Source of the DNA: an archaeon | Lineage (GTDB): Archaea > Methanobacteriota_B > Thermococci > Methanofastidiosales > NM3 | Direction: 5' to 3' | NCBI GenBank assembly: GCA_004212155.1 | Contig: RXIG01000028.1 | Span: 32,812 to 96,811, forward strand | DNA length: 64,000 nucleotides | In this document: piece by piece, positions 33,689 to 34,159 of the stretch | Layout: the number at the start of each line of letters is the position of its first letter | Numbering within the stretch: the first letter of the stretch is position 1 | Notes under the pieces: generated by a model | What the model was told of the DNA's origin: nothing | Database searches by the model: none | Seen by the model: only the letters and a program-made list of their open reading frames with translations | Translations under genes and position numbers: made by a program

Positions 33689-34159
33689 ATGGACGGTGTT
33701 TCTTTGGCCATGATCGGTGCCGGATTCGCGATAGGCATTTCAGCCATCGGTTCTGGTCTTGGCATAGGTATCGCAGGCGCTGCAGCGGCAGGGTCTGTCG
33801 CTGAAGACAAAAACAATTTCAAGAACTCTCTGATACTGGAGCTTTTGCCTCAGACACAGGTGATATACGGCCTCATCATCGCGGTCCTCATACTGTTCTT
33901 CACAGGATTGCTTGGTGGCGCAACAGCCGAACCACTCGCCGAGAAGGCGGGATTCGTAGCAATAGGTGCAGGTCTAGCAGTGGGACTCTCGGGGCTTTCC
34001 GCCATAGGACAAGGCATTACCTGCGCCGGTGGTATCGGCGCGGTCTCAAAGGATTCCTCGCTCTTGACACAAAACATCGTGTTCGGTGTCATGTCAGAGA
34101 TTGCCGCGGTGTTCGGTCTTGCGGTAGCAATTCTCATGATCCTGTTCGGCATCGCATAA
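33689..34159 (+). CDS. atpK: A-type ATP synthase rotor subunit K, two-hairpin form, Na+-type ligand set
   Basis: 156 residues forming two hairpins, four transmembrane helices, as in Enterococcus hirae NtpK. Only the second hairpin has the ion-binding carboxylate, E137 in MSEIAAVFG; the matching place in the first hairpin, [10 protein letters not shown], has glutamine (Q57) instead. The residues known to bind Na+ in E. hirae (L61, T64, Q65, Q110, E139) appear to correspond to L53, T56, Q57, Q108 and E137. This suggests a ring with half the usual number of carboxylates and Na+ coupling. GGGGTGA precedes the ATG. Confidence 0.93.

What the first reader, a model, noticed from the sequence alone, without database searches (positions are those of the whole stretch)
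33689..34159. ATP synthase ring with a Na+ ligand set and half the carboxylates
K has two hairpins but a single carboxylate (E137). L53, T56, Q57, Q108 and E137 appear to correspond one for one to the Na+ ligands of E. hirae NtpK. A ring with fewer ion sites per turn lowers the ion-to-ATP ratio, favouring hydrolysis-driven pumping or synthesis at high ion gradients. This is notable in an organism with NiFe-hydrogenase maturation genes.
Basis: partly seen in the sequence, partly recalled or inferred. Interest (0 to 1): 0.5.

Follow-up and report, generated by a model that had tools for sequence, protein, structure and literature searches.

The report
Sodium-type ATP synthase rotor, Thermococcus-like
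The gene encodes an ordinary sodium-type rotor subunit of an archaeal ATP synthase, of the kind already known from Thermococcus and Enterococcus; less ordinary is that this uncultured methane-producing archaeon also carries a second complete ATP synthase with a different rotor.

Summary
K (33689-34159, 156 aa) has two hairpins and one ion-site carboxylate, E137. L53, T56, Q57, Q108 and E137 align one-to-one with E. hirae NtpK L61, T64, Q65, Q110 and E139, and Y60 with Y68. A predicted model superposes on NtpK (2bl2: TM 0.88, 1.5 A). T56, Q57, Q108, E137 and Y60 are invariant in 28 relatives, including Thermococcaceae. K is thus a textbook Na+-type, half-carboxylate rotor in a complete H-I-K-E-C-F-A-B-D operon. 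'Half the carboxylates' overstates the gear change: a decameric ring like NtpK's gives 3.3 Na+/ATP, as in E. coli, and the E. hirae enzyme can make ATP.

The host is a Methanofastidiosia-type methanogen (MCR and Ehb present, no MtrE match). It encodes a second complete A-type ATP synthase on another contig, with a single-hairpin, two-glutamate c. All five genomes of its family have both enzymes; no other family in the class (115 genomes) was seen to. A-subunit trees reject a recent duplication: operon 1 groups with one sister family, operon 2 with Methanofastidiosaceae.

Most likely the K enzyme runs on a Na+ gradient made by Ehb. Ion use is inferred, not shown.

The parts
33689..34159 (+). 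K (rotor subunit c), two hairpins, Na+ ligands L53 (backbone), T56, Q57, Q108, E137, with Y60 as the E137-stabilising tyrosine; Q55 replaces the hairpin-1 carboxylate
31386..31736 (+). subunit H (peripheral stalk)
   Evidence: NCBIfam PRK08404/AhaH similarity below cut-off; operon position
31733..33688 (+). subunit I/a (stator with ion half-channels); both 'SYARLLALALS' and 'HSLRLHYVEFF' arginine motifs present
34173..34820 (+). subunit E (peripheral stalk)
   Evidence: Pfam PF01991
34830..35933 (+). subunit C
   Evidence: Pfam PF01992, NCBIfam AhaC above cut-off
35933..36244 (+). subunit F
   Evidence: Pfam PF01990
36228..38015 (+). catalytic subunit A
   Evidence: TIGR01043 950 bits, PF00006
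38005..39408 (+). subunit B (start 38005 or 38020; the listed ORF begins at 37939)
39411..40058 (+). subunit D (central shaft)
   Evidence: NCBIfam subunit D above cut-off
40039..40329 (+). 96-aa predicted membrane protein overlapping the end of D; unknown, may or may not belong to the operon
   Evidence: no family match

Best explanation
K is the rotor subunit of an archaeal A1AO ATP synthase with one Na+ site per double hairpin. The backbone carbonyl of L53 plus T56 and Q57 from hairpin 1, and Q108 and E137 from hairpin 2, cage one Na+, and Y60 locks E137. The other interface lacks ligands (Q55 in place of Glu, I138/A139 in place of Thr/Gln). A ring of about ten K subunits would move about ten Na+ per turn and make three ATP. 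In this methyl-reducing methanogen the Na+ gradient most likely comes from the Ehb energy-converting hydrogenase, so the main role is probably ATP synthesis, reversible to Na+ export. The same cell encodes a second, anciently diverged A-type ATP synthase with a single-hairpin, two-glutamate c that probably uses H+ or both ions. Shown here: genes, ligand identities, conservation, fold match, presence of both operons, MCR and Ehb. Inferred: Na+ coupling, ring size, direction, and division of labour.
For: Ligand-for-ligand alignment with NtpK, with ligands as defined in PMC2359735. AlphaFold2 model pLDDT 90.4, best PDB match 2bl2_A with TM 0.88 and rmsd 1.5 A over 151 columns. Ligands invariant in 28 relatives and in five other lineages. 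Closest architecture is the Thermococcaceae K, 50-52% identical with the same ligands; that enzyme is described as Na+-dependent. Complete operon. Host has MCR alpha, Ehb with EhbF and MnhB/C/E-like subunits, and no MtrE match. Ehb is proposed to build a Na+ gradient for ATP synthesis in Methanosphaera, with a similar scheme for Methanofastidiosa (PMC6019823). Second operon. PDB chain counts fit 10 K per ring and 12 Thermus c per ring.
Against: Ion specificity cannot be read from sequence with certainty: Na+-type rings can move H+ when Na+ is scarce (PMC2359735). Ring size is assumed from NtpK. E51, a conserved acidic residue one turn from the site, has an unknown effect. The organism is an uncultured metagenome bin about 90% complete, and no expression data were available.
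Confidence: 0.82

Rival explanations
1. The K enzyme is mainly an ATP-driven Na+ export pump, as in E. hirae, while the second (two-glutamate, single-hairpin) enzyme is the ATP synthase.
For: Two complete enzymes coexist in the family's genomes. NtpK in E. hirae is physiologically a pump (PMC12018189). In ammonia-oxidising archaea an additional V-type ATPase is thought to pump protons (PMC7490402, PMC8397731). Methanofastidiosaceae keep only the operon-2 type, so that type can serve alone.
Against: Thermococcaceae live with the K type alone, where it is the synthase. Ehb is proposed to make a Na+ gradient, and direction is set by gradient and phosphorylation potential, not by gene type.
Confidence: 0.3
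2. The ring is promiscuous or mainly H+-coupled in vivo despite the Na+ ligand set.
For: Characterised rings show some H+ preference, and E. hirae's is nearly non-selective (PMC3692424). M. acetivorans uses both ions. E51 could change the site's electrostatics.
Against: All five ligands and the locking tyrosine are kept, whereas H+ rings lack one or more of them (PMC2359735). Na+ is usually in large excess over H+.
Confidence: 0.12
3. The second ATP synthase is contamination or a recent copy, so the 'two enzymes' point is an artefact.
For: It lies on a different contig of a metagenome bin.
Against: All five family genomes have both types (G003 and G001 confirmed by operon-type best matches). 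Bin contamination is 0.11%. Operon-2 A subunits of the family form one clade, sister to Methanofastidiosaceae (100/99). A joint clade of both operons is rejected (p 1.2e-5).
Confidence: 0.03

Closest known systems
Thermococcaceae (Thermococcus/Pyrococcus-type) A1AO ATP synthase K subunit
   Same: Double hairpin, one ion-site carboxylate, LP-TQ..YG / Q / E ligands, E at position 51, same gene order H-I-K-E-C-F-A-B-D
   Different: 50-52% identity; Q55 here versus Met there at the dead carboxylate position; host is a methanogen with a second ATP synthase
Enterococcus hirae NtpK (V-type Na+-ATPase, PDB 2BL2)
   Same: All five Na+ ligands and the locking tyrosine; fold TM 0.88
   Different: 34% identity in the structural alignment; one residue shorter in TM3 before Q108; the E. 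hirae enzyme is a Na+ pump in vivo
Multi-hairpin archaeal c subunits (M. jannaschii three, Methanopyrus thirteen hairpins; PMC2359735)
   Same: Variation in sites per hairpin; many fetched archaeal multi-hairpin c subunits also start with a PQTQ hairpin lacking the carboxylate
   Different: Only two hairpins here, one site
Methanosarcina acetivorans single-hairpin two-glutamate c (compare operon 2, not K)
   Same: Operon-2 c has E28 and E57, matching the two-glutamate site described in PMC3692424
   Different: Compared through the published description only; sequences were not aligned here

Membership tests
Na+-type double-hairpin K (NtpK / Thermococcales A1AO) | Two ATP-synt_C hairpins in one polypeptide | tested here: met
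Na+-type double-hairpin K (NtpK / Thermococcales A1AO) | One ion-site carboxylate, in hairpin 2 | tested here: met
   E137; Q55 at the hairpin-1 position
Na+-type double-hairpin K (NtpK / Thermococcales A1AO) | Five Na+ ligands plus locking tyrosine | tested here: met
   alignment with 2bl2, invariance, ligand list PMC2359735
Na+-type double-hairpin K (NtpK / Thermococcales A1AO) | Four-helix fold of NtpK | tested here: met
   TM 0.88, rmsd 1.5 A
Na+-type double-hairpin K (NtpK / Thermococcales A1AO) | Encoded with a complete A-type ATP synthase | tested here: met
   nine genes in order
Na+-type double-hairpin K (NtpK / Thermococcales A1AO) | Ring of about ten K | not testable with these tools
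   assumed from NtpK (50 chains in 5 entries)
Na+-type double-hairpin K (NtpK / Thermococcales A1AO) | Na+-dependent activity, Na+ protection from DCCD | not testable with these tools
   biochemistry needed
NCBIfam PRK08344 'V-type ATP synthase subunit K' equivalog | Score above curated cut-off (108 bits) | tested here: met
   127 bits; the other two top K models are below their own cut-offs
M. acetivorans-like two-glutamate c (for operon 2) | Glu in both helices of the single hairpin at the ion-site positions | tested here: met
   E28 and E57 by alignment with K hairpin 2
M. acetivorans-like two-glutamate c (for operon 2) | Coupling to both Na+ and H+ | not testable with these tools
   biochemistry needed

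The most novel reading that the evidence does not exclude
A methyl-reducing methanogen family runs two anciently separate A-type ATP synthases side by side: one Na+-dedicated with about 3.3 ions per ATP, one two-glutamate single-hairpin enzyme using H+ or both ions at a different ratio. Together they couple the two gradients through ATP, with each sister family having kept only one of the two types.
Probability: 0.4. Interest if true: 0.62.

Novelty: new member of a known kind. Interest (0 to 1): 0.38.

Why it matters
K itself adds one more case to a well-described class and supports Na+ bioenergetics in Methanofastidiosia-type methanogens, where the proposed Ehb-driven scheme needs an ATP synthase that can use the gradient. 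The wider point is the pair of enzymes. In one small genome there is a Na+-type and a two-glutamate rotor, and related families keep one or the other. That makes the question of how and why archaea switch coupling ion and gear ratio testable within a single order.

Tried and rejected
Recent duplication of the two operons within the family: rejected (p-AU 1.2e-5). Operon 1 as direct sister of the Thermococcaceae K enzymes alone: weakly rejected (p 0.034), but with the multi-hairpin family f2 included it is not rejected (p 0.354), so deep relations among the Na+-type enzymes stay open. Literature search for two A-type ATP synthases in methanogens found nothing that fits; the nearest precedent is A-type plus V-type in ammonia-oxidising archaea. 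Phylum-level genome search covered only this class, so dual enzymes elsewhere were not surveyed; one Woesearchaeota contig (L069) shows both kinds side by side. Vonck 2009 on the P. furiosus ring was not held.

Full report
CHECK OF THE OBSERVATION. Pfam ATP-synt_C matches it twice. The best solved relative is E. hirae NtpK (2bl2), E 2.3e-14. In that alignment L53, T56, Q57, Q108 and E137 fall on NtpK residues 61, 64, 65, 110 and 139, exactly the ligands given for NtpK in PMC2359735, and Y60 falls on the locking tyrosine Y68. Aligning the two hairpins of K with each other puts Q55 opposite E137, and I138/A139 opposite T56/Q57: one site is built, the other is dismantled.

A structure predicted from an alignment of window and fetched-locus sequences has mean pLDDT 90.4, and its best PDB match is 2bl2_A, TM-score 0.88, rmsd 1.5 A. 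I could not read atom distances from the model, so the ligand geometry rests on the fold match plus the sequence alignment. L53, T56, Q57, Y60, Q108 and E137 are identical in 28 sequences from the class. T56, Q57, Y60, Q108 and E137 are invariant in K proteins of Woesearchaeota, Altiarchaeales, Hydrothermarchaeota, Micrarchaeota and Methanothrix contigs (those loci were fetched with patterns that include PQTQVIYG, so that motif's invariance is partly by selection).

ENERGETICS. NtpK rings have ten subunits, the ratio 10/3 = 3.3 was measured as 3.2, it equals that of E. coli, and the enzyme makes ATP with a sodium-motive force (PMC12018189). The PDB table is consistent: 50 chains in 5 NtpK entries and 132 chains in 11 Thermus entries, i.e. 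10 and 12 per ring. At a phosphorylation potential of 50 kJ/mol (illustrative arithmetic) 3.33 ions/ATP needs about 155 mV and 4.0 about 130 mV. Direction is therefore decided by the gradient, not by the missing carboxylates.

WHO CARRIES IT. The window lies in a 1.49-Mb genome, 89.8% complete. Two of its three nearest named relatives are bins labelled Candidatus Methanofastidiosia; the third bears a broad Methanomicrobia label. It has MCR alpha, no MtrE match, and an Ehb-type hydrogenase cluster with EhbF and MnhB/C/E-like subunits. That fits the methyl-reducing, H2-dependent methanogens of the Methanofastidiosales (PMC9635834); from MCR content the family may be the f__NM3 named there, but this was not tested. 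For Methanosphaera, Ehb is proposed to make the Na+ gradient that drives ATP synthesis, and a similar scheme is proposed for Methanofastidiosa (PMC6019823). Hyp maturation genes are in the window.

THE SECOND ENZYME. A family search of the same genome found a third ATP-synt_C hit on another contig and a second A/B pair. The second operon is complete (H I c E C F A B D on G000:C8; its H and E were assigned by position). Its c has a single hairpin with E28 and E57 at the ion-site positions, and T58 and F62 where Na+ rings have Ser/Thr and Tyr. PMC3692424 describes a predicted two-glutamate site for the M. acetivorans ring, which is coupled to both ions. The two operons are only 55% (A), 61% (B) and 31% (I) identical. 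All five sampled genomes of the family have both types: three show both c subunits directly, G001 has both A/B pairs, and G003 has a second B of operon-2 type. None of the other 110 genomes of the class shows a K plus a separate single-hairpin c, on the listed matches (list truncated), and no other genome at least 90% complete shows four A/B matches.

HISTORY. In a maximum-likelihood tree of 30 A subunits, the family's operon 1 groups with family f2 (97/92), whose c is a multi-hairpin protein. Operon 2 groups with family f4, the methanogens with a single-hairpin c (100/99). That f4 is Methanofastidiosaceae is inferred from its MCR, genome sizes and the published membership of the order. Holding all of the family's A subunits together is rejected (p 1.2e-5). 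The simplest reading is that an ancestor within the order had both types and sister lineages kept one each; transfer of whole operons is not excluded.

MECHANISM AND RIVALS. I favour Na+-driven ATP synthesis by the K enzyme, with Ehb as the Na+ source. The main rival is that K exports Na+ at the cost of ATP while operon 2 makes ATP, as proposed in outline for the extra V-type ATPase of deep-sea ammonia oxidisers. Sequence cannot decide this.

VERDICT. K is a new member of a known kind, confirmed with good confidence. The interest lies mostly in the second enzyme.

Noticed in passing
L004:3662-11526 (G000:C8), - strand: Second complete A-type ATP synthase operon with a 78-aa single-hairpin c carrying two ion-site glutamates; both operon types present in all five family genomes.
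   Followed up: yes
L046:6521-7887 with L047:3-893; L044, L045, L048: Sister family f2 encodes a c subunit with at least eight tandem hairpins; hairpins 1 and 6 carry PQTQ instead of PETQ. Contigs of three genomes break inside the repeat, so the true number is uncertain.
   Followed up: partly
L064, L065, L071, L072, L075, L076, L079: Methanoregulaceae/Methanolinea and related c subunits have frames of about 483 aa, roughly six hairpins, starting with a carboxylate-free PQTQ hairpin.
   Followed up: no
L069:741-11450: A Woesearchaeota contig carries a K-type operon directly followed by a second I and a single-hairpin c, another possible dual-ATPase archaeon.
   Followed up: no
window 43873-46276 +: LigD phosphoesterase, ligase and primase-polymerase as three adjacent genes, but no Ku match in any of five family genomes.
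   Followed up: partly
window 4005-6131 +: 708-aa lipoprotein-like protein matching DUF3160 at 684 bits, function unknown.
   Followed up: no
window 40039-40329 +: 96-aa predicted membrane protein overlapping the end of subunit D, no family match.
   Followed up: no
G000 genome: No membrane pyrophosphatase match in this genome although the four other family genomes have one; may be assembly incompleteness.
   Followed up: partly
L038:8971-9207 +: The operon-2 c of G002 has no ATG/GTG/TTG at the expected start; the aligned start codon appears to code for Ile.
   Followed up: no
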